DNA from: Gammaproteobacteria bacterium
GTDB lineage: Bacteria > Pseudomonadota > Gammaproteobacteria > SZUA-140
Direction of reading: 5' to 3'
NCBI GenBank assembly: GCA_021648525.1
Contig: JAKISP010000039.1
Location: 1-38,882, forward strand
DNA: 38,882 bases
The notes under the pieces were generated by a model. The model was given only the letters and a program-made list of their open reading frames with translations. It had not been told where the DNA came from and searched no databases. Position 1 is the stretch's first letter. Every line of letters begins with the position of its first letter. Of the stretch, positions 5,542 through 28,053 are shown piece after piece. The position numbers were made by a program, and so were the translations under genes.

Positions 5542-5591
5542 GCATAAAACAAATCGCTAACAACCCTAACAACCCACTGAAGGAAGATACC

Positions 5592-6116: not shown

Positions 6117-6239
6117 AGTAAACTGTGGATGTAAACCCAGTCAATAATAAAATGAAATCACGCTATTCGCGTAACAATATTTTCATGCGCGTTAGTCATA
6201 TAAGATCCATTGGTAGGATAAAAATCCAGGCGGGGCGGC

Positions 6240-7574: not shown

Positions 7575-7603
7575 CGCCACACAGACCACTCGGAATATAA
7601 ACT

Positions 7604-8533: not shown

Positions 8534-8553
8534 TTGTTTGATCCGAGTAATTT

Positions 8554-11500
8554 ATGAAAAAAATCGTCGCATTTTTTACCAATAGCATTGTTCTCTCCGT
8601 CATCGGACTAACCGCCATTTCACTGCTGATCTGGTTTGTCGGTGCAGAGTTCAAATTTGGTGAAGATAACGTCTCGCCGCTCGCCAGTGAAACCGCCAGG
8701 CTGCTCGCCATTATCATCGTCATTGTGATCTGGGGGCTTAATAATTTACGCATCCGCGCGCAGGAAAGCAAAAGCAATAACCAGCTGGTTGATGATCTAC
8801 AAACCAGCCAGGAGGAAGAAAAAAACCTCATCAACGATCAAACCTCTGGAGAAATCGCGCAGATTGATGAGCGCTTTAGCCAGGCATTAGCGACATTAAA
8901 AAAACTAAAGTTCAAAGGAAAGGGTTCCAGAAAAGCACTCTACGAGCTACCCTGGTACATCATCATTGGCCCTCCCGGTTCTGGCAAAACCACCGCTCTG
9001 ATCAATTCCAGCCTCGACTTCCCGCTTGCCGATCAATTTGGTAAAGGGGCACTCAAAGGCGTTGGCGGTACACGTAGTTGCGACTGGTGGTTCACCAATG
9101 AGGCGGTACTGATCGACACTGCCGGACGCTATACCACTCAGGATAGCCATAAGATGATTGATAGCTCTGCCTGGGAAGGGTTTCTTAATCTGTTGAAAAA
9201 ACACCGCCGTAGACGGCCTATCAATGGCGCCATCGTTGCGATTAGCCTGCAGGATCTGCTCACTCAGACTGAAGAAGAGCGGATTAAACATGCTAATACC
9301 ATCCGTACTCGTATTGATGAATTGATGGAGAAGCTAGAAATACGTTTTCCTGTCTATTTAATGTTTACCAAGTGCGACCTTGTCTCTGGTTTCACAGAGT
9401 TCTTTGAAGACCTTAGCAAAGATGATCGTGAGCAGGTATGGGGGATATCACTGCCTGATGCGCCACAGCATTCAGAAAGCCCCAATTTTAACGCCTTAAA
9501 CAATGAATACCAGAATATTATCAAGCGTCTCTATGATCGTGTGCTCTGGCGTGTTCACCAGGAGCGCGATGTAAAGCGACGTGCAGCGATACAGGGGTTT
9601 CCATTGCAGATGGAAAACCTGAACACCATTATCAATCAGTTTGTACAGCAGGCATTCATTAAAAACCGCTACCGCTTTCAACCCTATCTACGCGGCGTCT
9701 ATTTCACCAGCGGTACCCAGGACGGCACACCGATCGACCGCTTAATGTCGTCCGTTGCAGCCAGCTATGGTTTTAGTCGCGAAGCGGTCACCCCCGCAAT
9801 ACAGCAGGGGAAAAGTTATTTCCTTGGACAGCTGTTTCGCGATGTTATCTTTCCCGAATCCGAGCTGGTCGGTTCAAATTTAAAATACGAAAAGATCATC
9901 AAATGGGGCAAGCGCTCAGCTTATGCCGGGATGGCCGCCATCGTGCTCACCATGTCGTTGATCTGGGCTGATAGCTTTGTGCGCAACGAAGGTTACATGC
10001 AACAGGTCGCCTTGCACGTTGAGGAATACAACAGCGAGAAGGCAAAATTCAACGCACTCTCAAGCAGCATTCAGACGAGCCTGCCTACATTAAATGCACT
10101 TGCGCAGGCCAGCCAGGTCTATGACCAGGAGGCACACCCCTGGCTTTCAACTCTGGGGATGTATGATAGCCATGTTGATGATGCTGCCAACAGTGCCTAT
10201 CACGCTCAACTCAAACAACTGTTTTTACCAAAACTGATCACCTATATGGAGCGCCATTTAAGCCGTGGCCATAGTGGCGGCGACCTTTACAACTCATTTC
10301 GCACCTACGTGATGTTCAACAAGATCGACCATATGGACCCGCAATTAGTATTGAACTGGTTTACAGCAAGGTGGGACAAAGAATTTGAAGGTGAGGCGAC
10401 AAAAAGAAAAGCGCTCACGGCTCATTTAACAGCGCTGCTCAACCTTGAACTTGAACCTGCCAAACTAAATCCACGTATTCTCAGCGCCACCAGAAACCTG
10501 TTGTTACGTGTACCGGCCTCCCAGCGTATCTATCAACGAATTCGAACCGACCCAACCTACGCCCACCATTATGACCTGTTGAATGAGTTTGGCGAGTCGG
10601 TACGAAAAACATACGTCACCACTTCTGATGTGCTCAAAGCGCTGTCGATTCCGGTGCTGTTTACTAAAGAGGGCTACGACTCGATTGATTTCTCACCAGA
10701 GTCAAACATCATCGCCAGCATCACCAGCGAAAAATGGTTGTTCTCTGATAATGAAGATGCCAAAGTAGATTTCATCGAGGATGACCTGGATGAGGTCAGT
10801 AAAAAAGTTAAAGACCATTATTTATCTGAATATGTCACTCACTGGAAAAAGGTCTACGACGCCTTAGCGGTGAATCAATTTGATGATCTATCGCATGCCA
10901 ATGATGTGCTGAACTATTTTATCGACCCCGTCTACTCGCCACTGTTATCGATATTGCATATCACTTCAAACAATACGCAACTATCTAACCCGTTGGTAGC
11001 CGATCTTGCCGATGATAATCAGGAAGGTGCCAGCGGAAAGATTGCGGCATTCGCGGCTTCAAAGGCCGACTGGACCAAAGTAGACAGGGAGTTCAGAGAA
11101 CTCAATGTGATGCTGCGTGACTCTTCAAAAAAACCGGCGCCGATCAATGCGGTTTTATTAAAAGTTTCCGAACTGCAAACATTTGTTAATGAGATCGCGC
11201 TTGCGCCCGACCCTGCCAAAAAATCATTTGAGATCGCAAAGTCACGCTACCAGAATAATACTGGCAATGCGATCTCTTCACTGCAGGCCTTTGCCAATAA
11301 ATCACCAGAACCGATTCAGCGATGGTTAAACAGCCTTGCTAACCAGACATGGAAAGTGATCCTGCAAGCGGCTCACCAGCATATCAATGCCGAGTGGAAA
11401 ACAAATGTATTTGAGCCATACCGGCAGGGTCTGGCCAATCGTTATCCGCTAAAAACATCCGCACAGGATGAGCTGGCATTACATGACTTTGTCGCTTTTT

Positions 11501-12114
11501 TTAAGCCCGGCGGCACCATCGACGCATTCCACAAAGTGTATGTAAAACCATTTATCAGTACGCGTAACGGCTGGAGGAATCGCATCATTGATGGATATAA
11601 CCCAGGCCTGTCGCAAAAGACCATTAATCAGATAAGAAAGGCTCTGTCGATTAAAAACATCTATTTTAGAAAAAACGCCGAGGTTCCCTCGCTAACATTT
11701 CAGCTAAAACCACACTCAATGCCCAAGACCGATGCACGCTTCATACTAGAACTGGGTGACAATCGTATTTCATATAGCCATGGGCCTAAACTATGGAAGA
11801 CGTTAAGCTGGACAGGCGACGACGAACAGAATCGCGTTCGTATTATCTTTGAAGACCTGAATGAAGAACAACATAGCACAAGCTTTGAAGGGCCCTGGGC
11901 ATGGTTTAGATTGCTAAGTCAGTCAAAATTGGTTAAAACAGAAAAATCGAATGTCTACCTGGTCACTTATGGTATTACCAGGCGAAAGGAATCTTCTGAA
12001 TCACCAGGCTCCAATGTTAAACATGAAATCACATACAAGATTAAAGCGAAAAGCGTTAACAATCCATTTAATAACAATTTGCTAAGTTCGTTTAGATGCC
12101 CTGAGAATATATAA
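8554..12114 (+). CDS. tssM: T6SS inner-membrane protein TssM (IcmF)
   Basis: 1186-aa TssM, the core of the trans-envelope complex. Two transmembrane helices lie at about 11-31 and 48-62, then a cytoplasmic NTPase-like domain, a third helix at about 455-475, and a long periplasmic part that contacts TssJ. The nucleotide-binding motifs are intact: Walker A GPPGSGKTT (139-147), IDTAGRY (187-193) and the TKCD base motif (272-275). This places it among the TssM proteins with a potentially active NTPase. Length is normal for the family. It follows tssL after 20 bases and abuts tagF with no gap. Confidence 0.97.
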   Translation: MKKIVAFFTNSIVLSVIGLTAISLLIWFVGAEFKFGEDNVSPLASETARLLAIIIVIVIWGLNNLRIRAQESKSNNQLVDDLQTSQEEEKNLINDQTSGEIAQIDERFSQALATLKKLKFKGKGSRKALYELPWYIIIGPPGSGKTTALINSSLDFPLADQFGKGALKGVGGTRSCDWWFTNEAVLIDTAGRYTTQDSHKMIDSSAWEGFLNLLKKHRRRRPINGAIVAISLQDLLTQTEEERIKHANTIRTRIDELMEKLEIRFPVYLMFTKCDLVSGFTEFFEDLSKDDREQVWGISLPDAPQHSESPNFNALNNEYQNIIKRLYDRVLWRVHQERDVKRRAAIQGFPLQMENLNTIINQFVQQAFIKNRYRFQPYLRGVYFTSGTQDGTPIDRLMSSVAASYGFSREAVTPAIQQGKSYFLGQLFRDVIFPESELVGSNLKYEKIIKWGKRSAYAGMAAIVLTMSLIWADSFVRNEGYMQQVALHVEEYNSEKAKFNALSSSIQTSLPTLNALAQASQVYDQEAHPWLSTLGMYDSHVDDAANSAYHAQLKQLFLPKLITYMERHLSRGHSGGDLYNSFRTYVMFNKIDHMDPQLVLNWFTARWDKEFEGEATKRKALTAHLTALLNLELEPAKLNPRILSATRNLLLRVPASQRIYQRIRTDPTYAHHYDLLNEFGESVRKTYVTTSDVLKALSIPVLFTKEGYDSIDFSPESNIIASITSEKWLFSDNEDAKVDFIEDDLDEVSKKVKDHYLSEYVTHWKKVYDALAVNQFDDLSHANDVLNYFIDPVYSPLLSILHITSNNTQLSNPLVADLADDNQEGASGKIAAFAASKADWTKVDREFRELNVMLRDSSKKPAPINAVLLKVSELQTFVNEIALAPDPAKKSFEIAKSRYQNNTGNAISSLQAFANKSPEPIQRWLNSLANQTWKVILQAAHQHINAEWKTNVFEPYRQGLANRYPLKTSAQDELALHDFVAFFKPGGTIDAFHKVYVKPFISTRNGWRNRIIDGYNPGLSQKTINQIRKALSIKNIYFRKNAEVPSLTFQLKPHSMPKTDARFILELGDNRISYSHGPKLWKTLSWTGDDEQNRVRIIFEDLNEEQHSTSFEGPWAWFRLLSQSKLVKTEKSNVYLVTYGITRRKESSESPGSNVKHEITYKIKAKSVNNPFNNNLLSSFRCPENI

Positions 12115-12117
12115 GTG

Positions 12118-12834
12118 ATGCTTGAACAAAAAACTGGGCTATATGGAAAGTTGCCCATGCATGGCGATTTCATCCACCGTAATCTGCCCGTCTCTTTTCT
12201 CACCCCATGGGATGAATGGCTGCAACTCTATATTGCTGGCTCTCGTGAACAGATAGGTGATGAGTGGTTAAACATCTATTTAACCAGCCCCATCTGGCGC
12301 TTTGCCCTCTCTTCTGGTGTAATTGACCAGTACAACTGGGGCGGAATTATTTTGCCGAGTGTTGACCAGGTCGGGCGTTATTACCCATTTTCGATTGCGA
12401 CACCACTACCCACAGGGGTTAATCCAGTTGAGTTCATTTCATCTAATACAGCATGGTTCGAGTCGATAGAAGAACTCGCGTTACAGACACTCAATGAGCA
12501 ACATCAGATCGATGAGCTTAACGAAGCAATCAATATAATAGAAAATGACTTTTCGCCCAGCCGCCAGAAATCAACACAGAACATTGAAACGGATGCAATA
12601 CAGATAAACATGACCACAGATGACACGTTATCTGGCACCGCTTATAGCTGCCTGCTAGATTCTCTTTTAACAACAACGCATAATAGTTATAGCGTATGGA
12701 GCACCCAAGGCTCAGAATTAATAGCACCGTGTCTGCTCGCTACCCAGGGATTACCATCAATCGATAAAATACCGGCCATGATCGACGGCCAATGGGCCGA
12801 CAGTGGCTGGGCTCAACCTTACCGCATGATATAG
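12118..12834 (+). CDS. tagF: T6SS-associated regulator TagF
   Basis: 238-aa TagF (DUF2094/TIGR03373 family), a cytoplasmic post-translational repressor of T6SS that acts through the Fha arm in Pseudomonas. The N-terminus has the diagnostic GLYGKLPMHGDFIHRNLP pattern, followed by the FLTPWDEWLQ and IILPSVDQVGRYYPFSI motifs. The start may be GTG 12115, directly after the tssM stop, or ATG 12118; I use the ATG. A Ser/Thr/Gln-rich stretch (about 135-170) interrupts the C-terminal half. The 3' end overlaps the upstream-most possible start of pppA. In some bacteria TagF is fused to PppA; here the two are separate but adjacent. Confidence 0.92.
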   Translation: MLEQKTGLYGKLPMHGDFIHRNLPVSFLTPWDEWLQLYIAGSREQIGDEWLNIYLTSPIWRFALSSGVIDQYNWGGIILPSVDQVGRYYPFSIATPLPTGVNPVEFISSNTAWFESIEELALQTLNEQHQIDELNEAINIIENDFSPSRQKSTQNIETDAIQINMTTDDTLSGTAYSCLLDSLLTTTHNSYSVWSTQGSELIAPCLLATQGLPSIDKIPAMIDGQWADSGWAQPYRMI

Positions 12835-13607
12835 GCAGCAAATTTCAAGTGAATGACATTACAATAAGGCGCCCTGTTCTGTGGTCCAGCGCAGCTGCAA
12901 CAGACCCAGGTACAGTGAGGGCGATTAATGAAGACGCTATTTTTTCTAATCCTGAGATTGGCTTATGGGCGGTCGCTGATGGCATGGGCGGGCATGAAGC
13001 GGGGGATGTTGCCAGCAACATGATTGCTGAATCACTGAATCAAATCGGGGAACAAACCCAGATAGATGATTTTATTTCGACGATCGAGAATAGCATCAAA
13101 GATGTTAATTGCTGTCTACTTGAATATTCTCACACCCAGCATGAAGGACGAGTGATTGGTAGCACTGTCGCTGTCCTGTTTATTATGGAACAGACGGGGG
13201 TCTGTCTATGGGCTGGAGACTCGCGTCTGTACCGTTTTAGAAACAGTGAGCTAAAGCAGATGACGACTGACCATAGTCATGTTTCAGAACTGTTAAGAGA
13301 TGGGTTAATTTCACCTGAAGAAGCTGAAAACCACCCGGAAGCCAATGTCATCACGCGCGCAGTCGGGACCTATGAACATCTCCAGCTAGACGTGGAAGTT
13401 TTTGATGCAAGAGTCGGTGATGCTTTTTTACTCTGCAGCGATGGTTTATATAATGCAGTGGAGCACGAAAAAATTCGAAGCTGCTTGCTTAATGAGCACG
13501 TGACAGACTCAGCTGATTGCCTTATCGAGGCCGCATTGCACAATAATGCTGCCGACAACGTATCCGTGGTCGTTGTAAAAGGCACACACAGCAATATTGC
13601 TGATTAA
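12792..13607 (+). CDS. pppA: T6SS PP2C-type Ser/Thr phosphatase PppA
   Basis: PP2C-family metal-dependent phosphatase that reverses PpkA phosphorylation and so turns T6SS off. The metal-binding and core motifs are all present: RAINEDA, VADGMGGHEAGDVAS (D63-G64 from the first ATG), GSTVAVLF, WAGDSRLYRFR, ITRAVG, LLCSDGLYNAV and ADNVSVVVV. The start is uncertain. ATG 12792 gives 271 aa and overlaps tagF by 43 bases. GTG 12849 gives a protein starting 11 residues before the conserved DPGTVRAINEDA segment, which suits the domain boundary. Neither has a strong Shine-Dalgarno. It is soluble, with no signal or membrane segment, and is probably translated together with tagF and the kinase gene 27 bases downstream. 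Confidence 0.95.
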   Translation: MGRQWLGSTLPHDIGSKFQVNDITIRRPVLWSSAAATDPGTVRAINEDAIFSNPEIGLWAVADGMGGHEAGDVASNMIAESLNQIGEQTQIDDFISTIENSIKDVNCCLLEYSHTQHEGRVIGSTVAVLFIMEQTGVCLWAGDSRLYRFRNSELKQMTTDHSHVSELLRDGLISPEEAENHPEANVITRAVGTYEHLQLDVEVFDARVGDAFLLCSDGLYNAVEHEKIRSCLLNEHVTDSADCLIEAALHNNAADNVSVVVVKGTHSNIAD

Positions 13608-13634
13608 TTTTATCGCAAGCCACCCCATACGCTC

Positions 13635-16280
13635 ATGACTGATTCTGATAACAACAAAGATAAAGGTGATTCGCCACGAATTCCCAATCAATCGGGTGAG
13701 CAGGATAAAACAAGAATCTATCAGGAACCCGCCCAATCTGATAAAACACGCATCAGTCAGCGGCCGACAGCGCCTGTAGGCAAACCAGAACCATCAGGTG
13801 AACAGCCCTCGCAAGCAGCGAGTGATGTCACCCGATTCCAGCCGCCTGCTAAAGAATCAACGCATCTCAGAAGCAACCGCGAGGATAATAGCAATAACGC
13901 AAATGACAAAACCCAGTTTAGAGCGCCCGCCTCTCACCGGCCATCAGCCAGCGAAAAGCCGCAGCCAGCCTCAGACAAACAGATATTGAAGGGACGCTTT
14001 GAACTAGAATCAATCCTGGGTACGGGCGGCATGGGGGTCGTTTATAAGGCCAGAGATCGCTTAAAAGTTGAGGCTCAGGATAGAGACCCGTATGTTGCGA
14101 TAAAAGTGTTAAGCGAAGAGTTTAAAACACATCCTGAGGCATTTATTGCACTCCAGCGCGAATCACGTAAAGCACAGCGCATCGCACATCCCAGCACGGT
14201 GAAAGTCTATGACTTTGACAGGGATGGCGATATTGTTTTCATGACCATGGAGTATATGGTCGGCAAACCACTCGATCAAATGGTCAGGCAGTATCACGCC
14301 ACGGGGCTGCCTCGTGATGATGCGTGGGTAATATTGTCCGGTATCTGCTCGGCACTGGCACACGCCCACCATGAAAAAATTGTTCATTCAGATTTCAAAC
14401 CTGGCAACGTCTTTATAACGGACAGTGGTATGGCCAAAATTTTTGATTTCGGTATCGCACGTGCGGTTGCCAAAATCGACCGCCACGCAGATATCCCACA
14501 GGACCAGACAGTGTTTGATGCCGGTGGCCTCGGCGCACTCACCCCGGCATATGCTAGCCTTGAAATGCTACAGGGCAAAACCCCGGATATACGTGATGAT
14601 ATTTATGCGCTCGGCTGTGTCACCTATGAGATATTTACCGGTGAGCACCCTTTTGATCGGATTCCAGCGGATGAAGCGTATAAAAAGAAGCTCAAACCCA
14701 GGCGCATCACCGACATTAGTAAACCACAGTGGAAGGCAATTGAGGCCTCACTCGCATTCAAACGCGCAGATAGAATTGAGTCTGTTGATGAATTTTATCA
14801 TCAGTTAACCGTCAAAAAGAAACCAAAACTTTTTCTGACTGCACTACTACTCGCATCGATGGGTGGCGCATTCTTCGCATATACCCAGTTCATCAATACC
14901 CCCCTCCCTGACGCAGCTCCATCAGTTGATCTGAATGAATTTGAATTCAAAATCAGGTATCAGTTATCTCAGGAAAAAATCGAATCACTGTTAATCAAAC
15001 CCAGCTTCTCCGGTGAATGGGAAAACAGTATCTGGAACGAATTACGTGGACTCAATGACATGCTAAAGGGAATATCTGACGCATGGTACACCAGTACCCG
15101 CGACAAGATTTACCAGCTCTATGTTCAGAAGATTGCTCAAATGATGAGTGCGGGTAAATATAGCCACGCCAGGACCCTGATAGGGAATGGCTACCGCTAT
15201 ACTGATGACTCAACACGGCTCGACAATGAGACCATCAAACTAACCAGTGCAATCCAGTTGAAAGCCAACAAGGAAAAAGCAAAGGAAAGAGTGCGACAGA
15301 GGCTTGCAGATAAGAGACGGCAGTCCACTATAAATCAGGCAACCCGCTCTACTGAAAAGAAAAAGAATGTGGAACGATTTAACGTCGCATTAACCAATGT
15401 CAATCGACAACTGAAATGTATTGCGAAACTTAATATGCGTGATTTCAATATTGCAATCACCAAGCTGCGCACCCTGGATAATGCCAGATACAAAAAACTG
15501 GAGCCTGAACTCACCACAAACCTGGCGCAATGCATCTCTGCCATCGGTAAAAACAACCCTGAACATGCACTGGATGCCAGACGATACGCACTGCGTATTT
15601 TCCAGAATAATTCAGCTATCATGGCGGTAATGATCAAAGAGCGTGATGCCTGCGATCTGTCTATCGCAGGCCTCGGTTCAAATGGTGACCGTGCGGCGTG
15701 TCGAGACAAACTAACCAGTGGCGGTGAAGGCCCAACACTGGTTGTGATTCCCGGCAACAGGCGATTAAAACCATTTGCCATTGGCAAGTATGAGGTCTCT
15801 TATACTGATATTGCTGCTTTCTGTAAAATAACGGATCAATGCAATCTCAATAAAAGCGGTAATCAAAGTTATCCCGTTACCACCTTTGATATTTCAACCG
15901 TTAAGCGTTATCTGAATTGGCTAAGTAAACAGACCCAGAGAACCTATCGGCTACCGACTAAGCGCGAGTGGGTTTACGCCGCCAAATCCAGTAACTACCG
16001 ACTTGATCCCAACAGGAATTGCCACTTAAGCACGCGTGGTATTGAAAAAGGCGGTGAACTCGTTAGAACGACCATTGGCAAGCAAAATGGCTGGGGAATG
16101 GTTAATTATGCAGGCAACGTTCAGGAGTGGGTCTATCACACCAGAAAAAAACTGGTCGCGGTCGGTGGCTCTCATAACACGTCAATGGATGAATGTACGG
16201 TAATGACAACTGTAGAACATTCTGGTGAAGCCGATAAACAGACCGGCTTTCGAGTTGCAAGAGAGCTAGTGGATATATGA
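13635..16280 (+). CDS. ppkA: PpkA-like Ser/Thr kinase with FGE/SUMF1-like periplasmic domain
   Basis: 881-aa transmembrane kinase that should phosphorylate T6SS targets read by TagH. A disordered N-terminal tail (1-115) carries four related motifs: DKTRIYQEP (24-32), DKTRISQRP (36-44), DVTRFQPP (64-71) and DKTQFRAP (91-98). The kinase domain (about 120-385) has the glycine loop GTGGMG (129-134), K157 in VAIKV, catalytic HSDFKPGN (D253, with Ser in place of the HRD arginine) and DFG (271-273), so it should be active. One transmembrane helix lies at about 399-420. A charged helical periplasmic region follows, then a C-terminal formylglycine-generating-enzyme-like domain (about 703-878) with RLPTKREWVYAAK, GNVQEWV, GGSHNTS and GFRVAR. 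In Pseudomonas PpkA the C-terminus is a vWA domain, so the sensor differs here. The FGE-like domain is probably a sensor, not an enzyme. Confidence 0.93.
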   Translation: MTDSDNNKDKGDSPRIPNQSGEQDKTRIYQEPAQSDKTRISQRPTAPVGKPEPSGEQPSQAASDVTRFQPPAKESTHLRSNREDNSNNANDKTQFRAPASHRPSASEKPQPASDKQILKGRFELESILGTGGMGVVYKARDRLKVEAQDRDPYVAIKVLSEEFKTHPEAFIALQRESRKAQRIAHPSTVKVYDFDRDGDIVFMTMEYMVGKPLDQMVRQYHATGLPRDDAWVILSGICSALAHAHHEKIVHSDFKPGNVFITDSGMAKIFDFGIARAVAKIDRHADIPQDQTVFDAGGLGALTPAYASLEMLQGKTPDIRDDIYALGCVTYEIFTGEHPFDRIPADEAYKKKLKPRRITDISKPQWKAIEASLAFKRADRIESVDEFYHQLTVKKKPKLFLTALLLASMGGAFFAYTQFINTPLPDAAPSVDLNEFEFKIRYQLSQEKIESLLIKPSFSGEWENSIWNELRGLNDMLKGISDAWYTSTRDKIYQLYVQKIAQMMSAGKYSHARTLIGNGYRYTDDSTRLDNETIKLTSAIQLKANKEKAKERVRQRLADKRRQSTINQATRSTEKKKNVERFNVALTNVNRQLKCIAKLNMRDFNIAITKLRTLDNARYKKLEPELTTNLAQCISAIGKNNPEHALDARRYALRIFQNNSAIMAVMIKERDACDLSIAGLGSNGDRAACRDKLTSGGEGPTLVVIPGNRRLKPFAIGKYEVSYTDIAAFCKITDQCNLNKSGNQSYPVTTFDISTVKRYLNWLSKQTQRTYRLPTKREWVYAAKSSNYRLDPNRNCHLSTRGIEKGGELVRTTIGKQNGWGMVNYAGNVQEWVYHTRKKLVAVGGSHNTSMDECTVMTTVEHSGEADKQTGFRVARELVDI

Positions 16281-16478: not shown

Positions 16479-16535
16479 ATGTCTCACTTACCCACCAAAC
16501 ACCACAGCATGGAACTGCTTATATGGAAATCGTAA
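16479..16535 (+). CDS. Possible 18-aa leader peptide overlapping the ExbB-like gene
   Basis: A short ORF, MSHLPTKHHSMELLIWKS, has the best ribosome-binding site of this region (GGAGG at 16470-16474, four bases before the ATG). It ends 12 bases inside the ExbB-like gene, whose own ATG at 16523 has no good Shine-Dalgarno. The arrangement would allow translational coupling: ribosomes finishing the leader could restart at 16523. No in-frame start for the ExbB-like protein exists upstream at the GGAGG. Whether the peptide itself does anything is unknown. Confidence 0.35.
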   Translation: MSHLPTKHHSMELLIWKS

Positions 16536-17140
16536 AATTATTCCAGGATGGCGGGCCATTTATGTACCCAATACTGGTGGTGTTTGCGATTGGTGTCGCA
16601 ATCGCGCTGGAACGATATTTCTATTTAAGCAAAACCACTCGCGCTACTAATAAAATATGGGGCCAACTGATACCGATGCTGAAGGCATCCGATTTTGAGC
16701 GCGCCTTTAAGCTAACAGAATCCGTTAACACACCGATCTCCAGTGTCCTGAACTATGGTTTTTCCCGGCACAATGAAAATAAGCGCAGAGAGATCATTGA
16801 GGCAGCCATGGAAGAAGGCATGATGGATGCAATGCCATCACTGGTGCAACGCACCCACTACCTTGCGACATTCGCTAACGTCGCTACCCTGCTGGGGCTA
16901 CTAGGTACTATCGTCGGACTGATACAGGCCTTTACCGCCGTTGCGGCTGCCAACCCCGCAGACAAAGCCGATCTACTATCAGCCAGCATCTCAGTTGCGA
17001 TGAACACCACTGCCTTTGGCCTGATGGCCGCCATTCCGCTGCTACTCGCTCACTCCTATTTAGTGACCAAAACAGCACACCTGGTCGACTCCCTGGAAAA
17101 GGCAGCGGTTAAATCCATTAATTTAATGGTCAAAGATTAA
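16523..17140 (+). CDS. MotA/TolQ/ExbB proton-channel protein, AglR-like
   Basis: 205-aa inner-membrane subunit of a proton-driven motor. It has three hydrophobic segments in TolQ/ExbB order: about 13-35 (MYPILVVFAIGVAIALERY), 115-137 (ATFANVATLLGLLGTIVGLI) and 156-179 (ISVAMNTTAFGLMAAIPLLL). The large cytoplasmic loop lies between the first two. The conserved LGLLGTIVG and NTTAFGLMAAIP motifs line the expected proton path. Two ExbD-like genes and a TonB-like gene follow directly. One TolQ-type plus two TolR-type subunits is the composition of the Myxococcus AglR-AglQ-AglS gliding motor, not the one-plus-one set of ordinary Tol or Ton systems. Assignment as AglR-like is by composition and context, not by alignment. 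Confidence 0.9.
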   Translation: MEIVKLFQDGGPFMYPILVVFAIGVAIALERYFYLSKTTRATNKIWGQLIPMLKASDFERAFKLTESVNTPISSVLNYGFSRHNENKRREIIEAAMEEGMMDAMPSLVQRTHYLATFANVATLLGLLGTIVGLIQAFTAVAAANPADKADLLSASISVAMNTTAFGLMAAIPLLLAHSYLVTKTAHLVDSLEKAAVKSINLMVKD

Positions 17141-17155
17141 AAAGCAACGCTAACC

Positions 17156-17668
17156 ATGAAGAAGTTCGCTTTTAAACGTATCCAGGAGACAGAAGAGCTC
17201 AACATCACTGCCTTTATGAATTTAATGGTGATATTGATCCCTTTTCTTTTGATCACGGCTGTTTTTTCAAGGATGACCATTCTTGAGTTAAATCTACCTG
17301 CGCTAGATGCTAAAAATAAAGACCAGGAAAAAATCGAACTACAGCTTGAACTCGTCCTACGCAGCAATAGCTTTGATATTCAGGATGCCAATATCGGCCT
17401 GATCAAACGCTTCCCTCGCTCTCAGGATGAAACACGTTGGGATCAGTTTACAGATCTGCTGATTGAAATAAAAACACGTTTCCCTGAAGAGGAAGAGATC
17501 GCGCTGTTATTAGAGCCGGATATCAACTATAAAACGCTCACGCAAGTGATGGATCATGTGCGCAGTGCGGAGGTGGTATCGGTATTAAGCGTAGAAACCG
17601 TCGCATTGTTCCCCAGTATTTCTATCGGTGATGCACCCGCAGAGATACTCAGCAGTGCAGAGAAGTGA
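17156..17668 (+). CDS. ExbD/TolR-like protein with Asn at the proton-site position
   Basis: 170-aa bitopic inner-membrane protein: short cytoplasmic N-terminus, one transmembrane helix (about 18-39, ITAFMNLMVILIPFLLITAV), and a periplasmic domain. In ExbD/TolR/MotB the helix begins with a proton-carrying Asp; the aligned residue here is N22 (AAT at 17219-17221), so this subunit probably does not carry protons. The periplasmic part ends in the TolR-like VMDHVRSAEVVSVLSVETVA region. It begins 15 bases after the ExbB-like gene and ends six bases before the second ExbD-like gene. It likely forms a mixed pair with that partner. Confidence 0.88.
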   Translation: MKKFAFKRIQETEELNITAFMNLMVILIPFLLITAVFSRMTILELNLPALDAKNKDQEKIELQLELVLRSNSFDIQDANIGLIKRFPRSQDETRWDQFTDLLIEIKTRFPEEEEIALLLEPDINYKTLTQVMDHVRSAEVVSVLSVETVALFPSISIGDAPAEILSSAEK

Positions 17669-17674
17669 TCAGAG

Positions 17675-18175
17675 ATGACAGCAAAAGCAAAATTATCTGA
17701 TCGATCCAGAAGAATGGCGCACTTTAGAGCACTGCACTCTCGTGGTGGTTTAAACCTGGTCTCGCTGATGGATATCTTCACCGTGCTGGTGTTTTTTCTA
17801 CTGGTAAGCTCGGGCACCCAGTTACCCAGCAATAAAGAGCTGACACTACCCACCTCTGTTGCCACCAAGGTCCCTCAGGAAACGCTGGTAATCACCATCA
17901 CCAGAAGCGATATATTGGTTCAGGGTGAAAAGATCATCGAAATCTCTCAACTGTTAGGTAGCGATATCACCGTGATTGAGGGGCTTAAAGAGGCGCTGAT
18001 CTTTCAGGCCTCAAAACAACGTCAGCCTCTAACAGGAGTAGTTGCAGGACATGCGGTCACCATTATGGGTGATGAAAATATCCCATATCAATTACTAAAA
18101 AAAATTCTCGCTACCTGTCGCCAGGCTAACTATACCCAAATTGCATTTGCTGCCATGCAAAAAGCCAAAGGCTAG
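17675..18175 (+). CDS. ExbD/TolR-like protein retaining the catalytic Asp
   Basis: 166-aa bitopic inner-membrane protein with a transmembrane helix at about 28-48 (LVSLMDIFTVLVFFLLVSSG). D33 (GAT at 17771-17773) is at the position of the essential proton-binding Asp of ExbD/TolR/MotB. The periplasmic domain contains the ExbD-like VAGHAVTIMGDENIPYQLL region. It follows an ExbD-like gene that has Asn at the same place, so the motor would contain one Asp-bearing and one Asn-bearing stator subunit. The TonB-like gene starts five bases after its stop. Confidence 0.9.
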   Translation: MTAKAKLSDRSRRMAHFRALHSRGGLNLVSLMDIFTVLVFFLLVSSGTQLPSNKELTLPTSVATKVPQETLVITITRSDILVQGEKIIEISQLLGSDITVIEGLKEALIFQASKQRQPLTGVVAGHAVTIMGDENIPYQLLKKILATCRQANYTQIAFAAMQKAKG

Positions 18176-18180
18176 CGTCG

Positions 18181-19176
18181 ATGCCTCCTGTTACTTATCA
18201 AGGGCTGGCCCTGTCATGGCATCCACAGAATAGCAACGACAAACCGTTCGCTATTTTTTTGACGCTGATTCTGACGCTATTCATCGGCCTCGGACTCTTT
18301 TTAAGCACCATAGAGGTGCCCGAAACCAGCAACAGAACAAAAGTGGAAGTGCCAGAGCGTATTGCCAGATTCATCATGGAAAAACCAAAACCGGCACCAA
18401 AGCCACCGGCACCCAAAAAAGAGATAAAAATCAAAGAAAAACCCAAACCAGAAATCAAACCTGAGAAGCCACCCAGGCCAAAACAGCCGACCGTTAAAAG
18501 GAAAAAACCAGAGAAGCCCATCAAGCTCACCAAAAAAGAGAGCACCGCGCGTGAAAAAGCAGCTAAAAGCGGCCTTATTGCGCTGAGTAATGAGCTATCC
18601 GATTTAATCGATACATCAAGTATTGATGCCATGATGGGCAAGCCACTTAAAAAGTCAGGTAAGCCGACACAGGTCGCGACGGTTAATACGGCACTCATCA
18701 CCTCCGATAGCGCTCAGGAAGCTAAGCATGTCGATATTGTTGCGAATCTACCCCATGTTATTAGTCACACCACACTGGATACTCAGCAGCGCGAAGCGGC
18801 GGCGCAGACGCTACTCGCCGCCAGGGCTGAAGAGTCAGTCGCTAGCAAGAAGGCCAGGGATAGCGAAGAGCAGCCGCGCGCCGGAAATCAGCGCTCAGAG
18901 GAAGCGATCGCCTACGTCATTGACCAGAATAAGAGCAAATTGCATGCGATTTATCGCAGTGCACGCAGAAATAACCCCGGTATCATGGGAATGATCGTGC
19001 TAGAAATCACTATTTTACCATCCGGCGAGGTTGAAGGGGTCACGATAAAATCGAGTGAATTAAATAATGCACGTCTTGAGGCGCGCCTGATCGCTCGCAT
19101 CAAGCAGTTCGACTTTGGCAGCAAGAACGTCAATAAAGTAACGGTAACATACCCCATTGAGTTTTTACCGTCATAA
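18181..19176 (+). CDS. TonB-like protein with AgmX/PglI-type C-terminus, GltG-like
   Basis: 331-aa inner-membrane-anchored, periplasm-spanning protein. One transmembrane helix (about 23-42) is followed by a Pro/Lys-rich rod (about 70-120, repeats like PKPAPKPPAPKK and KPEIKPEKPPRP), a charged middle, and a C-terminal domain (about 235-331) of the AgmX/PglI type. That domain has the TonB-like IYRSARRNNPGIMGMIVLEI and TILPSGEVEGVTIKSSEL segments and ends VTVTYPIEFLPS. AgmX (GltG) and PglI (GltJ) of the Myxococcus gliding complex share this C-terminal domain and couple the AglRQS motor to outer-membrane partners. This protein is shorter and lacks the cytoplasmic FHA/zinc region of GltG. It closes the motor cassette. 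Confidence 0.88.
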   Translation: MPPVTYQGLALSWHPQNSNDKPFAIFLTLILTLFIGLGLFLSTIEVPETSNRTKVEVPERIARFIMEKPKPAPKPPAPKKEIKIKEKPKPEIKPEKPPRPKQPTVKRKKPEKPIKLTKKESTAREKAAKSGLIALSNELSDLIDTSSIDAMMGKPLKKSGKPTQVATVNTALITSDSAQEAKHVDIVANLPHVISHTTLDTQQREAAAQTLLAARAEESVASKKARDSEEQPRAGNQRSEEAIAYVIDQNKSKLHAIYRSARRNNPGIMGMIVLEITILPSGEVEGVTIKSSELNNARLEARLIARIKQFDFGSKNVNKVTVTYPIEFLPS

Positions 19177-19659: not shown

Positions 19660-20760
19660 ATGGCATCACCCGCAATAATTGATATCGACGAGCTGCTGAA
19701 ACCGATCTCAGAAGAGCGCCCTGTTGGTGAAAACCTGCGCTTGAATAATACACCTGCTTCCCAGTACTCAACCATCAAAGATGCGCGCAACGCTGCCAGA
19801 GCCGCTGAGCGCAAAAACATGTTTGATGACAGCAATACCGAAGCATCAGAGCACTGGAAAAAAATCATCACGCTGGCCCCGCAAATTCTGACCTCTGAGG
19901 CAAAAGACCTCGAAATTGCCAGCTGGTATACCGAGGCTTTAATCAGAAAATCGGGGTTTGCTGGCTTAAGGGATGGTTTCACTCTCCTTAGGCAGTTAGT
20001 TGAGCAGTACTGGGAAGCCGGCCTGTATCCAGCTGCCGATGAAGACGGTATTGAGACACGAGTCGCACCCATCTCAGGGCTTAATGGCGAAGGCAGTGAT
20101 GGCGTCTTGCTCGCCCCAATACGACGCACAGAGATCACTGACGACTTCGTTCCTGGACCTTTTAGCCTTTGGCAGTATAAACAGGCAATCGACCTTTCGC
20201 GCATGACTGACGATAATGAACGAGGCCAGCAGGCCTCAAAAATTGGCTTCAGTATGGAAGATATTGGCAATGTGGTGGAACAATCTTCATCGGACTATTT
20301 TGTCAATCTCAGAGATGACATCACCATTTGCCTGACTGAATACAGGGCATTAAGTGAGCTGCTGATTACTCACTGTAGCCACGATGCACCAGCGACCAAC
20401 AAAATTATTGAGCTACTGGAAGAGACGCTCAACGCAGTTAACCACATTGCCAAACATAAATATCCGGTAGAAGAGGAAGCGGTCAGTGACGATTCTCCTG
20501 AAGAAGCCCATACAAGTTCAACCAGTTCACCCGCTCAAAAAGGGCCAATCAGCTCACGAGATGAGGCTTTTCGGCAGTTAAAGAGCATTTCAGATTTTTT
20601 TCGTGGAACCGAGCCACATTCACCGATATCATATGTGCTCGATAAAGCCGTCAGATGGGGCGATATGCCACTGGATGAACTCATGAGTGAATTGATCCCA
20701 GATCGCTCCTCCCGAGCGACTTACAGTTCACTAACGGGAGTTAAAACAGATGATAATTAA
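19660..20760 (+). CDS. tssA: T6SS cap/baseplate protein TssA
   Basis: 366-aa TssA of the short class. The N-terminal ImpA domain (about 10-135) has IDELLKPISEERPVGENLR and the YWEAGLYPAADEDGIETRV signature. The C-terminal part (about 300-366) has FFRGTEPHSPISYVLDKAVRWG, typical of TssA with the Pseudomonas TssA1-like tail that stays at the baseplate. A Ser/Glu-rich linker lies at about 265-300. It starts the second block of T6SS structural genes and precedes tssB by 100 bases. GGAGCAGG provides the ribosome site. Confidence 0.94.
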   Translation: MASPAIIDIDELLKPISEERPVGENLRLNNTPASQYSTIKDARNAARAAERKNMFDDSNTEASEHWKKIITLAPQILTSEAKDLEIASWYTEALIRKSGFAGLRDGFTLLRQLVEQYWEAGLYPAADEDGIETRVAPISGLNGEGSDGVLLAPIRRTEITDDFVPGPFSLWQYKQAIDLSRMTDDNERGQQASKIGFSMEDIGNVVEQSSSDYFVNLRDDITICLTEYRALSELLITHCSHDAPATNKIIELLEETLNAVNHIAKHKYPVEEEAVSDDSPEEAHTSSTSSPAQKGPISSRDEAFRQLKSISDFFRGTEPHSPISYVLDKAVRWGDMPLDELMSELIPDRSSRATYSSLTGVKTDDN

Positions 20761-20784
20761 TAGTACACTGTCAACACACCACTA

Positions 20785-20853
20785 TTGATAAATAACCTAT
20801 TTTCACTTTAAAACGTCCCCTAAACTTATATAAACAGGGTACCTACGGAGGAG
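20785..20853 (+). promoter_or_regulatory. Candidate promoter and strong ribosome site for tssB
   Basis: TTGATA (20785-20790), 16 bases, then TTTAAA (20807-20812) is a weak sigma70-like pair in the 100-base gap before tssB. GGAGGAG (20847-20853), seven bases before the tssB ATG, is the strongest Shine-Dalgarno in the cluster, as expected for the abundant sheath proteins. The promoter call is tentative; the ribosome site is clear. Confidence 0.35.
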
Positions 20854-20860
20854 TAACACC

Positions 20861-21382
20861 ATGGCCGACAGCATACATGACAAGTTAAAACGAGTAAGAA
20901 AACCACGCGTACACATCACGTATGATGTAGAAACCAATGGCGCAGTTGCAAAAAAAGAGCTGCCATTTGTGATGGGGGTGATGGGAGACTACTCTGGCGA
21001 CAACACCGAAGCCAAAAAACCACTCAAAGATAGAAAGTTTTCACAGATTGACCGTGATAATTTTAATGAGATCATGGCAAAGACTGCACCAAAATTGAAC
21101 ATGAAAGTCGATAATACGCTAGCGAATGACGGTAGTGAGATGTCTGTTGCTCTGGACTTTAAAGAGATGGAAGACTTTGAACCCCATAAGCTTGTCGAGC
21201 AGGTTGAACCATTAAAGAAATTAATGGAAACCCGTAATAAATTACGTGATCTGCTAAGTAAAGCGGATCGCTCTGATGAACTGGAAAGCCTGCTCGAAGA
21301 GATCCTCAACAATACTGATACCATGGCAGCACTATCAGGTGAATTAGGGATTAATAAAGACGACAGCAAGGGTGACCAATAA
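20861..21382 (+). CDS. tssB: T6SS sheath small subunit TssB
   Basis: 173-aa TssB (VipA/ImpB), which pairs with TssC to build the contractile sheath. The N-terminus has [20 protein letters not shown] and [13 protein letters not shown], and the centre has the [19 protein letters not shown] signature. Length is typical. The stop overlaps the start of tssC by one base (TAATG), a strong sign of coupled translation and equal stoichiometry. Confidence 0.97.
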
Positions 21383-22869
21383 TGAGCGAAAAACAACAGG
21401 CAGATGGCCAGCAAGAAGCAGAAGCCACTGAAGGCAGTTTTTTAGAGCAGGCAATCGGGGCGACCAAACAGACCCCACGGGATGAGACTGAAGAATTACT
21501 CAAGACCCTGACCCAGGAAGCACTGAATGGCACGGTGACATGGGATAAAAATCTGACTATCACAATCAACTCTGCCATCGATGCCATTGATCAGGCCTTA
21601 TCAACACAACTTTCGGCCATTATGCAACATGAAAAACTTCAGAAGTTAGAAGGATCGTGGCGTGGTCTGAACCATCTGGTGATGAACTCTGAAACCAGTA
21701 GTCAGCTGAAAATCCGCGTGATGAATATCAGCAAAAAAGAGATCGCTAAAGACCTTGCAAAGGCGGTTGAATTCGATCAGAGCCAGACCTTTAAAAAAAT
21801 CTACGAAAGTGAATTCGGCACCGCCGGTGGCGAACCCTATGCCGCATTAATCGGTGATTATGAATTCTCATCCCACCCGGATGATATTGATCTACTCAGC
21901 AATATCTCAAATGTCGCCGCAGCAGGTTTTTGCCCCTTTATCGCCGCATCAGCCCCTGAGATGTTTGGTTTTGAGTCCTTCACAGAGCTATCAAAACCGC
22001 GCGACCTGGAAAAGATTTTCGACTCTTCTGAGTATGTAAAATGGCGAAGCTTCCGTGATAGCGAAGATTCTCGCTTTGTCACGCTGACCATGCCACGTGT
22101 CCTTGCCCGTCTACCTTATGGAGAGGCAACCAAACCCATTGAGGCCTTTAATTTTGAGGAAGGCAGTGTCGATCACGCTGGACAACAACTCGCTAACGAT
22201 CATGATAACTACTGCTGGATGAATGCCGCGTATGCAATGGGTGCTACCCTGGCACGTTCATTCGCAGAATACTCCTGGTGCACCAGCATTCGCGGTGCAG
22301 AAGGTGGCGGTAAAGTCGAAGGGCTACCCAGCCATGTTTTTACCAGTGACGATGGTGATCTGGATCAAAAATGCCCGACCGAAATTGGCATTACTGATCG
22401 TCGTGAAGCCGAACTCAGCAAACTCGGTTTCTTACCACTTTGTCACTATAAACATACTGACTACGCCGTCTTCTTTGGTGCTCAGACCACCCAAAAGGCG
22501 AAAAAGTTTGATGATCCGGATGCTACCGCAAATGCAGAAATCTCTGCGCGCCTGCCTTACATTATGGCCACCGCTCGTATCGCACATTTCCTGAAGGTAA
22601 TGGCGCGCGATAAGGTCGGCTCATTCCTGGAGGCCTCAGATGCTGAAGCATGGCTAAACAACTGGATTTCAAATTACGTCAATAGCGATCCTACTGCCAG
22701 CGCTGAAATGAAAGCACGCTACCCATTGGCAGAGGCATCAGTGGAAGTGAAAGAAGTACCGGGTGAGCCTGGTGTCTATAGCGCCATTGCAAGATTACGC
22801 CCGTGGCTACAAATGGAAGAACTGACCGCTTCTCTGAGACTCGTTGCCAAGATTCCGAAAGGGGGCTAG
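21382..22869 (+). CDS. tssC: T6SS sheath large subunit TssC
   Basis: 495-aa TssC (VipB/ImpC/EvpB). It has [38 protein letters not shown] and the C-terminal MARDKVGSF and [10 protein letters not shown] regions typical of the family. It should form the ClpV-recognised sheath with TssB. It begins on the tssB stop codon. A 10-bp hairpin follows its stop and a second TssC-family gene comes next. Confidence 0.97.
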
Positions 22870-22877
22870 GTACCAAC

Positions 22878-22909
22878 AGGGCTGCTTTTATTCAGGTAGA
22901 AGCAGCCCT
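22878..22909 (+). promoter_or_regulatory. Hairpin between tssC and tssC2
   Basis: AGGGCTGCTT (22878-22887) and AAGCAGCCCT (22900-22909) are perfect 10-bp inverted repeats with a 12-base loop, starting eight bases after the tssC stop. No T-run follows on the plus strand, so it is unlikely to be an efficient intrinsic terminator. It more likely stabilises the 3' end of the tssB-tssC message or partly attenuates transcription into the downstream genes. Confidence 0.6.
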
Positions 22910-22960
22910 TCATTATCAAATTAAAATAAGTTTGACGCTTTATAGGTCAATAATAGTGCG

Positions 22961-24478
22961 ATGTCAGAAACTCAAAACCATACATCATCCACCACGCAAC
23001 GAAACAGTGCCATCGACCTGGATGCGGTTCTTTCTCAGCCAGCCTATCTGACTAACCTAAACGCATTTCTCAATGAGCAGGATGATGGCAAAGCACTGCG
23101 TTACTGCGTTGAAAACTTCATACCCAAAAGAAGACTCACCTCAATTACTAATGTAAAAGGCGCGGCCTTTCAGTTAATTGCAGATATTGATGAGGCCATT
23201 AATGCACAGTTAAACACCATCATCCACCACCCCAGATTCCAGAAACTCGAAGCGTCGTGGCGAGGCCTGTGGTTTCTTATGAAAAAAACAGATGGTACCA
23301 AAAACATCAAACTAAAAATGCTGGATATCAGCTGGGCTGAAGTCACTAAAGATATTAGTAGAGCACTTGAATTTGACCAGAGTCACCTCTTTCAAAAAAT
23401 CTATAGCGAAGAGTACGGTTCCCCTGGCGGACAACCATACGGCGCGATCATTGGCGACTATGAAGTTAGCCATCGTATTTCCCCTAAACACCCACATGAT
23501 GATATTGCAACACTAGAGGGCATGGCACAGATTGCTGCAGCCTCACTCTCCCCTTTCATTGCCGCCGCCTCAAGCGAACTTTTTGGCATGGAGGATTTTT
23601 CAGGGCTTGGACAGCCGCTTAAATTAGAAACCATTTTCAAACAGAAAGAGTATATAAAGTGGAATTCACTAAGAGAAAAGGTAGATGCTCGCTTTGTTGC
23701 ATTGACCCTGCCCAGAATACTGATGCGGCAGCCTTACCGAAAGTTCGCTGGCAGCCACAAAGGAATTCACTTTCATGAGCACACGGATGCTAACAATCAT
23801 CATCACCTGTGGGGCAACGCCTGCTACGCCTTTGGCGGCGTTTTAATCAGAGAGTTTCAGCATGTGGGCTGGTTTGGTCACATCAGAGGGACACCGCGCA
23901 ATTATATTTCAGGCGGTCTGGTCTCAGACATCCCCATCGATACTTTTAACTCCGCGCCAGGTAAGATCGCATTCAAACCAGCCACCGATGTGATCGTCAC
24001 CGATGCGTTAGAAAAGGTGATCAGCGAACTAGGGTTCATGCCGCTATGTCAGGGCTACTTATCCCCTTACGCCACGTTTTATAATAATCAGACCGTGCAT
24101 CAGGCGCAATCATATAGCACTGCCGACGCACGTATTAATGGTCAACTTTCAGCGATGCTACAACATGTGTTATGTGGTGCTCGTATTGCTCATTACATCA
24201 AAGTGATGATGCGCGATAAAGTAGGTTCATTTTCCAGTGCCGAGCTATGCGAACGAGCACTGAGTGACTGGTTACTGAAATATACCGCAGGCCAGGAAGA
24301 CCTCGACTGGGAAACTCAGGCAAGATACCCATTAAAGCAGGCATCCGTTGATGTCAGAGAACACCCATCAAAACCAGGCGAATATATTTGTGTGATCCGT
24401 TTACAACCCCACTATCAACTCGACCAGCTGGTCTCTGAATTAGAGTTGATAACCGAACTTGCGGCATTAAAAAATTAA
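22961..24478 (+). CDS. Second TssC-family protein (ImpD/TssC2-like)
   Basis: 505-aa protein clearly of the TssC family but distinct from its neighbour. It shares LEASWRGLWFLM, FQKIYSEEYGSPGGQPYGAIIGDYEV and MMRDKVGSF. Rhizobium-type imp loci also encode two such proteins (ImpC and ImpD), and this corresponds to the second. Here it stands between tssC and tssE, where hcp lies in many clusters. A His cluster sits in a loop replaced by acidic residues in TssC: H270, H272, H274 and H280-H282. Its role may be as a sheath-associated or baseplate-proximal variant. No strong ribosome site precedes ATG 22961. tssE follows after two bases. Confidence 0.92.
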   Translation: MSETQNHTSSTTQRNSAIDLDAVLSQPAYLTNLNAFLNEQDDGKALRYCVENFIPKRRLTSITNVKGAAFQLIADIDEAINAQLNTIIHHPRFQKLEASWRGLWFLMKKTDGTKNIKLKMLDISWAEVTKDISRALEFDQSHLFQKIYSEEYGSPGGQPYGAIIGDYEVSHRISPKHPHDDIATLEGMAQIAAASLSPFIAAASSELFGMEDFSGLGQPLKLETIFKQKEYIKWNSLREKVDARFVALTLPRILMRQPYRKFAGSHKGIHFHEHTDANNHHHLWGNACYAFGGVLIREFQHVGWFGHIRGTPRNYISGGLVSDIPIDTFNSAPGKIAFKPATDVIVTDALEKVISELGFMPLCQGYLSPYATFYNNQTVHQAQSYSTADARINGQLSAMLQHVLCGARIAHYIKVMMRDKVGSFSSAELCERALSDWLLKYTAGQEDLDWETQARYPLKQASVDVREHPSKPGEYICVIRLQPHYQLDQLVSELELITELAALKN

Positions 24479-24480
24479 GC

Positions 24481-24978
24481 ATGCCACGCATCGATAAAAC
24501 AAAAAAATTACGCCCATCGGTTCTCGACCGCTTGTTTGACAATGAGCCTCATAATCAAACCGAACGTGACCTGGATGACCATCAGCTGCTAAAACAGTTA
24601 CGTTCAAGCATCCGTCGAGATCTGGAAAGTTTACTTAACACACGGTTTCATATCGCCGAACCCAGCGATGAATTCCCGCAATTGGACAAATCGTTACTGA
24701 ATTATGGCCTGCCAGATCTGGCCACCGTTAATATTATTGATATTGATAAAAGAAACGAATTCACCAGAGCGCTTGAAAAAACATTAAAACAGTTTGAACC
24801 GCGCTTTAAGTCGGTCAAGGTCTCTTTTCTTGAGCGTGATGACAATACAGATCGCACCTTGCGATTTAGAATAGATGCGGTCATTTATGCAGACCCACTG
24901 CCTGAAATTATCATCTTTGACTCAATCTTTGAATCAGTCACCAGAACAGTGAACGTTAAGGAAATTAGCCATGGCTGA
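24481..24978 (+). CDS. tssE: T6SS baseplate protein TssE (gp25-like)
   Basis: 165-aa TssE, the gp25-like wedge protein that starts sheath polymerisation. It has the RPSVLDRLFD N-terminus, the SIRRDLESLLNTR helix and the YGLPD motif near the centre, then FEPRFKSVKVSF and RFRIDAVI, all conserved in this family. It starts two bases after the second tssC gene and overlaps tssF by eight bases. Confidence 0.95.
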   Translation: MPRIDKTKKLRPSVLDRLFDNEPHNQTERDLDDHQLLKQLRSSIRRDLESLLNTRFHIAEPSDEFPQLDKSLLNYGLPDLATVNIIDIDKRNEFTRALEKTLKQFEPRFKSVKVSFLERDDNTDRTLRFRIDAVIYADPLPEIIIFDSIFESVTRTVNVKEISHG

Positions 24979-27885: not shown

Positions 27886-27958
27886 TCGCAATGGCGACTA
27901 AAAATCCAGCAAAATGAACTGTTTTCTTACGCCCAAATTACGATAATCATTATATAAT

Positions 27959-27990
27959 GAGACCTTTGCATGATACAGGTGCGAAAGAAA
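27959..27990. repeat. IS/MITE-end-like repeat, copy 2
   Basis: GAGACCTTTGCATGATACAGG and the following GTGCGAAAG match the left arm and loop of the palindrome at 3565-3609 with a few changes. This copy lacks the right inverted arm. Both copies follow TAA-C/TAAT-like sequence (TATAAT before this one). It sits in the tssG-clpV gap and looks like a solo decayed transposon end. Confidence 0.45.
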
Positions 27991-28053
27991 ATAGCACACG
28001 ACGCACGCTCAACCACAGACACTTTATAATATTGACTGAGAGGAATAAGTAAG

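What the first reader, a model, noticed from the sequence alone, without database searches (positions are those of the whole stretch)
17156..18175. Paired ExbD-like subunits, one with Asn and one with Asp at the proton site
At the position of the essential transmembrane Asp of ExbD/TolR/MotB, the first subunit has Asn (N22, AAT) and the second Asp (D33, GAT). A stator with one proton-competent and one silent subunit would be asymmetric, which could give directional force.
Basis: partly seen in the sequence, partly recalled or inferred. Interest (0 to 1): 0.6.

Follow-up and report, generated by a model that had tools for sequence, protein, structure and literature searches.

The report
Gliding-type motor with one proton site
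A proton-driven membrane motor related to the one that powers gliding in Myxococcus has, in many bacteria, lost the key acid in one of its two axle proteins but never in the other, so it probably runs on one proton site instead of two; in this genome a copy of it also sits inside a type VI secretion gene cluster.

Summary
ORFs 16523-19176 are an AglR-AglQ-AglS-GltG operon, the motor part of the 'core complex' related to Myxococcus gliding. N22 of the first ExbD and D33 of the second both align with ExbD Asp25. In 113 gammaproteobacterial operons the first subunit has Asn in 106, Asp in 1, Ser in 1 (5 unreadable); the second has Asp in 112 of 112. In 84 Myxococcota operons the first has Asp 58, Asn 24, Ser 1, Gly 1. 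ExbD/TolR outside this branch: Asp in 55 of 55. Myxococcus AglQ/AglS are Asp/Asp, and AglQ D28N, natural here, is published as killing that motor. Asn-type subunits usually carry Pro at +7.

Best reading: an obligate AglQ:AglS mixed axle in an AglR ring with one titratable site, at most 5 protons per turn rather than 10. The mixed axle is inferred, not shown. 'Asymmetry gives directional force' is not supported: symmetric motors are already directional.

Also found: in 8 genomes of 6 families, one clade of this operon lies inside a T6SS cluster (TssL-TssM-TagF-PppA-PpkA-AglR-Q-S-GltG). Its role there is unknown.

The parts
16523..17140 (+). AglR-like ring subunit (MotA/TolQ/ExbB family, P0003)
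   Evidence: PF01618 98.6 bits; profile A2 finds Myxococcus AglR/NglR as best matches
16994..16996 (+). V158 codon, at the position of ExbB Glu176; Glu in most Asp/Asp relatives, Val/Ile in most Asn-type ones
17003..17005 (+). N161 codon, a near-invariant Asn of the AglR branch at the position of ExbB residue 179
17156..17668 (+). AglQ-like ExbD/TolR subunit with Asn at the proton site (P0001)
   Evidence: PF02472 50.2 bits; predicted helix 17-45 and a periplasmic alpha/beta domain, pLDDT 70.5
17219..17221 (+). N22 (AAT), aligned with ExbD Asp25 and Myxococcus AglQ Asp28
17240..17242 (+). P29, seven residues after N22; present in 108 of 116 Asn-type gamma rows, in none of 191 AglS-like rows
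17675..18175 (+). AglS-like ExbD/TolR subunit with Asp at the proton site (P0002)
   Evidence: PF02472 66.6 bits; predicted helix 28-46
17771..17773 (+). D33 (GAT), the conserved proton-site Asp
18181..19176 (+). GltG-like force transducer (TonB-like, AgmX/PglI C-terminal domain, P0004)
   Evidence: NF033768 68.5 bits against 40; GltG model 32.9 bits; TonB_C 24.7 against 24.6
30897..32294 (+). TPR protein, homolog of a gene next to aglRQS in 57 of 104 other gamma loci within the stretch fetched
32294..35107 (+). large TPR lipoprotein-like protein of the core complex (GltD-like by size and position; inference)
35082..35684 (+). small TPR lipoprotein-like protein (weak GltE match, 37.7 bits)
4117..16280 (+). 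first part of the T6SS cluster: TagH, TssJ, TssK, TssL, TssM, TagF, PppA, PpkA
19660..30744 (+). second part of the T6SS cluster: TssA, TssB, two TssC-type sheath proteins, TssE, TssF, TssG, TssH
   Evidence: TssB, TssF and TssG named by position and by matches among loci

Best explanation
The operon encodes an AglRQS-type proton-driven motor and its GltG-type transducer. Five AglR-like subunits form a ring round an axle made of one AglQ-like and one AglS-like subunit. Only AglS D33 binds and releases protons. AglQ N22 behaves as a permanently neutral, protonated-like site, and its Pro at +7 marks a helix remodelled for that role. The motor would then take up at most 5 protons per turn in 72-degree steps, not 10 in 36-degree steps. 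GltG and the TPR proteins would pass the force to the outer membrane. Shown: residues, conservation, gene order, family membership. Inferred: the mixed axle, the proton count, the force path.
For: Asn (or Ser, Gly; no Glu seen) at the AglQ site and Asp without exception at the AglS site across two phyla. The two genes are always next to each other in the order R-Q-S. Asn-type and Asp-type operons need only 3 changes on the tree, so the state is old and stable. ExbD/TolR outside this branch always has Asp (55 of 55). Asn-type helices carry Pro at +7. Published 5:2 motors have exactly two axle helices in a pentamer (PMC6778125), and MotB D22N is treated as a protonation mimic (PMC9389320). In M. 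xanthus aglR, aglQ and aglS are each needed (PMC3858216), which fits one complex with both axle proteins.
Against: No stoichiometry, structure or multimer model exists for any AglRQS complex; PMC9389320 says it is not known whether AglQ and AglS form hetero- or homodimers. M. xanthus AglQ D28N is dead although AglS keeps its Asp, so one Asp does not suffice in that Asp/Asp motor. In the scheme of Figure 6 of PMC9389320 the two sites must swap protons, which a fixed neutral site cannot do. My coupling analysis of Q and S had no power.
Confidence: 0.55

Rival explanations
1. Two homodimeric stators share AglR: AglR5-AglS2 with two Asp conducts protons, AglR5-AglQ2 with two Asn does not and serves as an anchor, plug or regulator.
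For: Both ExbD proteins keep the whole ExbD domain layout; homodimers are the rule in ExbBD, TolQR and MotAB structures; homo- or heterodimer is open in the literature.
Against: Strict 1:1 adjacency of Q and S in every operon read; M. xanthus needs both AglQ and AglS, and AglQ D28N alone stops the motor. An unconstrained non-conducting homodimer would not obviously keep Asn so strictly.
Confidence: 0.2
2. The Asn takes part in ion transfer in another way (for example a hydrogen-bonded or sodium-coupled path with the near-invariant ring Asn N161), so the motor differs in ion use and not only in the number of sites.
For: The AglR branch has an extra near-invariant Asn in TM3 and has mostly lost the Glu at ExbB 176 in Asn-type operons (Glu in 52 of 58 Asp-type Myxococcota operons, 4 of 26 of the non-acidic ones, 1 gamma Asn-type operon).
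Against: Ser and Gly replace Asn in a few operons (L267, L362, L317), which speaks for 'not acidic' rather than a needed amide. The ring Asn is also present in Asp/Asp operons. The Glu link rests on 2-3 independent changes and is not significant.
Confidence: 0.12
3. AglQ is not part of the pore at all but an accessory membrane protein bound beside the AglR-AglS motor.
For: It lost the residue that defines pore function.
Against: The pore-helix motif round the site (N-[IL]-T-x-[FM]-[ML]-N-L-M) is among the most conserved parts of the protein, which an outside helix would not need; Asp returned in separate lineages with the pore motif intact.
Confidence: 0.08
4. The Asn is a decayed or mis-sequenced site in a dying copy.
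For: One base separates AAT from GAT.
Against: Same residue in 106 of 108 readable operons and in a second operon of the same genome.
Confidence: 0.01

Closest known systems
Myxococcus AglRQS gliding motor (MXAN_6862-6860)
   Same: Gene order R-Q-S, families, AglS Asp, ring Thr residues; found as the best matches of the AglR profile in a Myxococcus genome
   Different: AglQ has Asp28 there, Asn here; ring TM3 has Glu there, Val here; glt genes are scattered there
Group B 'core complex' of Luciano et al. 2011 (PMC3169522): aglRQS with gltC, D, E, G in Gammaproteobacteria
   Same: The same gene set in one cluster; the second operon of this genome (contig C45) has the typical layout
   Different: In the window the motor genes and the TPR genes are split by T6SS genes; the paper's main text does not mention aspartate or T6SS
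ExbB-ExbD-TonB and TolQ-TolR-TolA
   Same: Ring and axle families; pore Thr residues; TonB-like transducer
   Different: Those have one kind of axle subunit with Asp; here two kinds, one with Asn
MotAB with a D22N/D32N protonation-mimic mutation
   Same: Asn at the ion site
   Different: Laboratory mutation in a homodimer, inactive; here natural, in one of two paralogs

Membership tests
ExbD/TolR (PF02472) | Family model above curated cut-off | tested here: met
   50.2 and 66.6 bits against 25.4
ExbD/TolR (PF02472) | Essential Asp in the pore helix | tested here: not met
   Not met by the first subunit (N22), met by the second (D33)
ExbD/TolR (PF02472) | Periplasmic ExbD-like fold | tested here: inconclusive
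   Model pLDDT 70.5; solved ExbD periplasmic domain ranks 4th with probability 0.99 but E = 0.02, no match below 0.001
AglRQS motor | Operon of one MotA/TolQ-like and two TolR-like genes in the order R-Q-S | tested here: met
AglRQS motor | Closer to AglR/AglQ/AglS than to other ExbB/ExbD | tested here: met
   In Myxococcus the aglR-type loci score 1e-48 and 1e-43, other ExbB about 1e-19; trees
AglRQS motor | Asp in both AglQ and AglS, as in M. xanthus | tested here: not met
   Asn in AglQ here; but 24 of 84 Myxococcota operons of the same family also have Asn
AglRQS motor | Proton conduction and movement of an envelope complex | not testable with these tools
   needs experiment
Luciano core complex | GltG-like transducer next to aglRQS | tested here: met
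   NF033768 68.5 bits
Luciano core complex | gltC, gltD, gltE-like TPR genes in the cluster | tested here: inconclusive
   Three TPR genes at 30897-35684 are homologs of the genes in front of aglRQS elsewhere; direct match to named Glt models only weak (GltE 37.7 bits)
TonB system | TonB C-terminal domain | tested here: inconclusive
   24.7 bits against 24.6
Type VI secretion cluster | TssJKLM, TssA, TssBC, TssEFG, TssH present | tested here: met
   hcp and vgrG not seen in the window

The most novel reading that the evidence does not exclude
A naturally one-sited 5:1:1 rotary motor: an AglQ(Asn):AglS(Asp) mixed axle that turns on five protons per revolution, against the stated expectation that ten-fold symmetry is universal in 5:2 motors, with one clade recruited to drive or position a step of type VI secretion.
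Probability: 0.3. Interest if true: 0.85.

Novelty: new variant of a known kind. Interest (0 to 1): 0.62.

Why it matters
Whether both sites of the axle are needed, and how many protons pay for one turn, is an open question for all 5:2 motors (flagellar stators, ExbBD, TolQR, AglRQS). A family in which nature removed one of the two sites and kept it removed in one branch after another, while relatives keep both, turns that into a direct comparison: same family, one site against two. [quoted passage not shown] a mixed axle with one site would be five-fold. It also tells experimenters that the AglQ D28N mutation used as a dead control in Myxococcus is the normal state elsewhere. The T6SS-linked clade raises the separate question of why an injection system would need a proton-driven envelope motor.

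Tried and rejected
Coupling analysis (mean-field DCA) on 195 joined R, Q, S rows to look for contacts between Q and S: within-protein pairs were not enriched either, so no power. Test of joint change of AglQ Asp and AglR Glu176: only 2-3 independent pairs, not significant. Fold comparison of the AglQ model: no significant match. Plasmid collection: no match to AglQ. Searching the library for earlier notice of the Asn/Asp pair or of a T6SS link: none found, but most subscription papers, among them the 2011 PNAS report of AglRQS, are not held. Considered and rejected: sequencing error or decay (conservation), another acid taking over the site (none in the helix), ordinary TonB uptake operon (no receptor nearby in the window, transducer closer to AgmX/PglI-type). 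The E. coli ExbD and TolQ rows were also from memory; repeat the alignment against solved chains.

Full report
What is there. The two ORFs of the finding are real and lie in a tight four-gene operon: 16523-17140 (MotA/TolQ/ExbB family), 17156-17668 and 17675-18175 (both ExbD/TolR), 18181-19176 (TonB-like with an AgmX/PglI C-terminal domain). The first ExbD has Asn22 (AAT) and the second Asp33 (GAT) in the pore helix. An HMM of the first subunit aligned to solved ExbD chains places N22 on Asp25.

What family it is. Gene order and sequence make it an AglR-AglQ-AglS-GltG operon, the motor part of the 'core complex' that Luciano and colleagues described in 2011 in Gammaproteobacteria and linked to the Myxococcus gliding machinery, with no known function outside Myxococcales and Bdellovibrio (PMC3169522). 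The AglR profile finds the Myxococcus aglR-type loci at 1e-48 and 1e-43 and other ExbB proteins only near 1e-19. The same genome has a second operon of the usual layout on another contig, also Asn/Asp.

Conservation of the Asn/Asp pair. I read 113 operons of the class: first subunit Asn 106, Asp 1 (L221), Ser 1 (L267), 5 not readable because the reading frame was cut or fused; second subunit Asp 112 of 112. Six more operons agree. In Myxococcota 84 operons give Asp 58, Asn 24, Ser 1, Gly 1 for the first subunit. Every second subunit that could be read there has Asp; ten that the alignment showed as gaps were read by eye. In the Myxococcus genome itself the first subunit has Asp at residue 28, counted from its start, and the second Asp too; the second Myxococcus system is also Asp/Asp. 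Outside this branch all 55 ExbD/TolR proteins looked at have Asp, including 7 tandem pairs. So the absence of Asp is a trait of the AglQ branch and not of tandem ExbD genes in general.

Age. On trees of the ring subunit and of all three proteins, with the trait columns left out, the acidic and non-acidic states of AglQ need 3 changes against about 42 and 23 in shuffles. Asn-type operons occur in both phyla and lie at the base when ordinary ExbB is the outgroup, but the outgroup branches are long, so whether Asp was lost once and regained or lost several times is open.

Further marks of the Asn type. Pro stands seven residues after the Asn, on the same face of the helix, in 108 of 116 gamma rows and 11-12 of 24 Myxococcota rows, in 1 of 60 Asp-type rows and in none of 191 AglS rows. 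The ring subunit has Glu at the place of ExbB Glu176 in 52 of 58 Asp-type Myxococcota operons, in 4 of 26 non-acidic ones and in 1 gamma Asn-type operon; it is otherwise Val, Ile, Leu, Ala or Thr, with Lys in one Myxococcus group. This pattern is suggestive only: it rests on two or three independent changes. The ring Thr residues (ExbB 148 and 181) are kept throughout.

How it probably works. Solved ExbBD has two axle helices in a pentamer with their Asp residues facing the ring Thr residues (PMC6778125). In the published model a 5:2 motor passes one proton per 36 degrees, ten per turn, the two sites taking turns, and ten-fold symmetry is called almost certain to be universal (PMC9389320). MotB D22N is treated there as a protonation mimic. 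If AglQ and AglS share one ring, as their constant pairing and the need for both in M. xanthus suggest (PMC3858216), the axle has one working site and one that is always neutral. That fits a variant in which rotation is allowed when both sites are neutral and is paid for by AglS alone: five protons per turn. It does not fit the swap scheme as drawn. It is also at odds with the dead M. xanthus AglQ D28N, which must then lack what the Asn-type motors have gained, perhaps the Pro and the changed ring. The mixed axle itself has not been shown here or in the papers read; the review says it is unknown.

The T6SS link. In 8 of the 113 operons (window, L188, L191, L193, L196, L200, L216, L272; eight genomes, six families) the order is TssL-TssM-TagF-PppA-PpkA-AglR-AglQ-AglS-GltG. 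These eight form one supported clade among gamma operons (98 by SH-aLRT). Nearly all other operons follow two or three TPR genes instead. In the window those TPR genes lie at the other end of the T6SS cluster, and a TPR protein of the same close kind (45-55% identity) lies on the T6SS contig in four further genomes, and at 87% in G003 on a contig that begins with a T6SS sheath gene. All eight genomes also hold an ordinary copy. So the motor seems to have been taken into a T6SS cluster once and kept. I found no earlier mention in the papers held. What it does there is not known; moving or placing the secretion apparatus, or acting as a sensor upstream of PpkA signalling, are guesses.

Limits. 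Many are draft assemblies. No multimer modelling was possible. The single-chain AglQ model (pLDDT 70.5) has the expected helix and periplasmic domain but no significant fold match.

Noticed in passing
window 21382-24478: Two tandem T6SS sheath large subunits (TssC type); the same doubling occurs in the other genomes with the T6SS-linked operon.
   Followed up: partly
window 13635-16280: PpkA-type Ser/Thr kinase fused to a C-terminal FGE-sulfatase domain, directly upstream of aglR; the same neighbour in all eight T6SS-linked loci.
   Followed up: partly
L158-L160 (Myxococcus and relatives): The second Myxococcus AglR-type ring subunit has Lys at the position of ExbB Glu176.
   Followed up: no
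L010, L011, L016, L017, L021, L023, L025, L028 in front of aglR: A conserved, probably secreted protein of about 90-130 aa with the motif ELPKVLYIVPW stands between the TPR genes and aglR in ordinary gamma loci; it is not seen in front of aglR in the window. It may be the additional gene mentioned by Luciano et al.
   Followed up: no
L221 (G036): The only gamma operon with Asp in both subunits; it has also lost the Pro at +7.
   Followed up: partly
L322, L338, L348, L349: A Myxococcota group with Asn in AglQ but Glu kept in the ring, the main exception to the Glu pattern.
   Followed up: no
L148-L164, paired loci L150/L162 and L152/L161: In Sorangium and Minicystis two AglR-type operons lie head to head within about 1 kb.
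   Followed up: no
L069: A record titled Comamonas sp. KCTC 72670 carries Myxococcus-type MglA (98%) and AglRQS, so it is probably a mislabelled myxobacterium.
   Followed up: no
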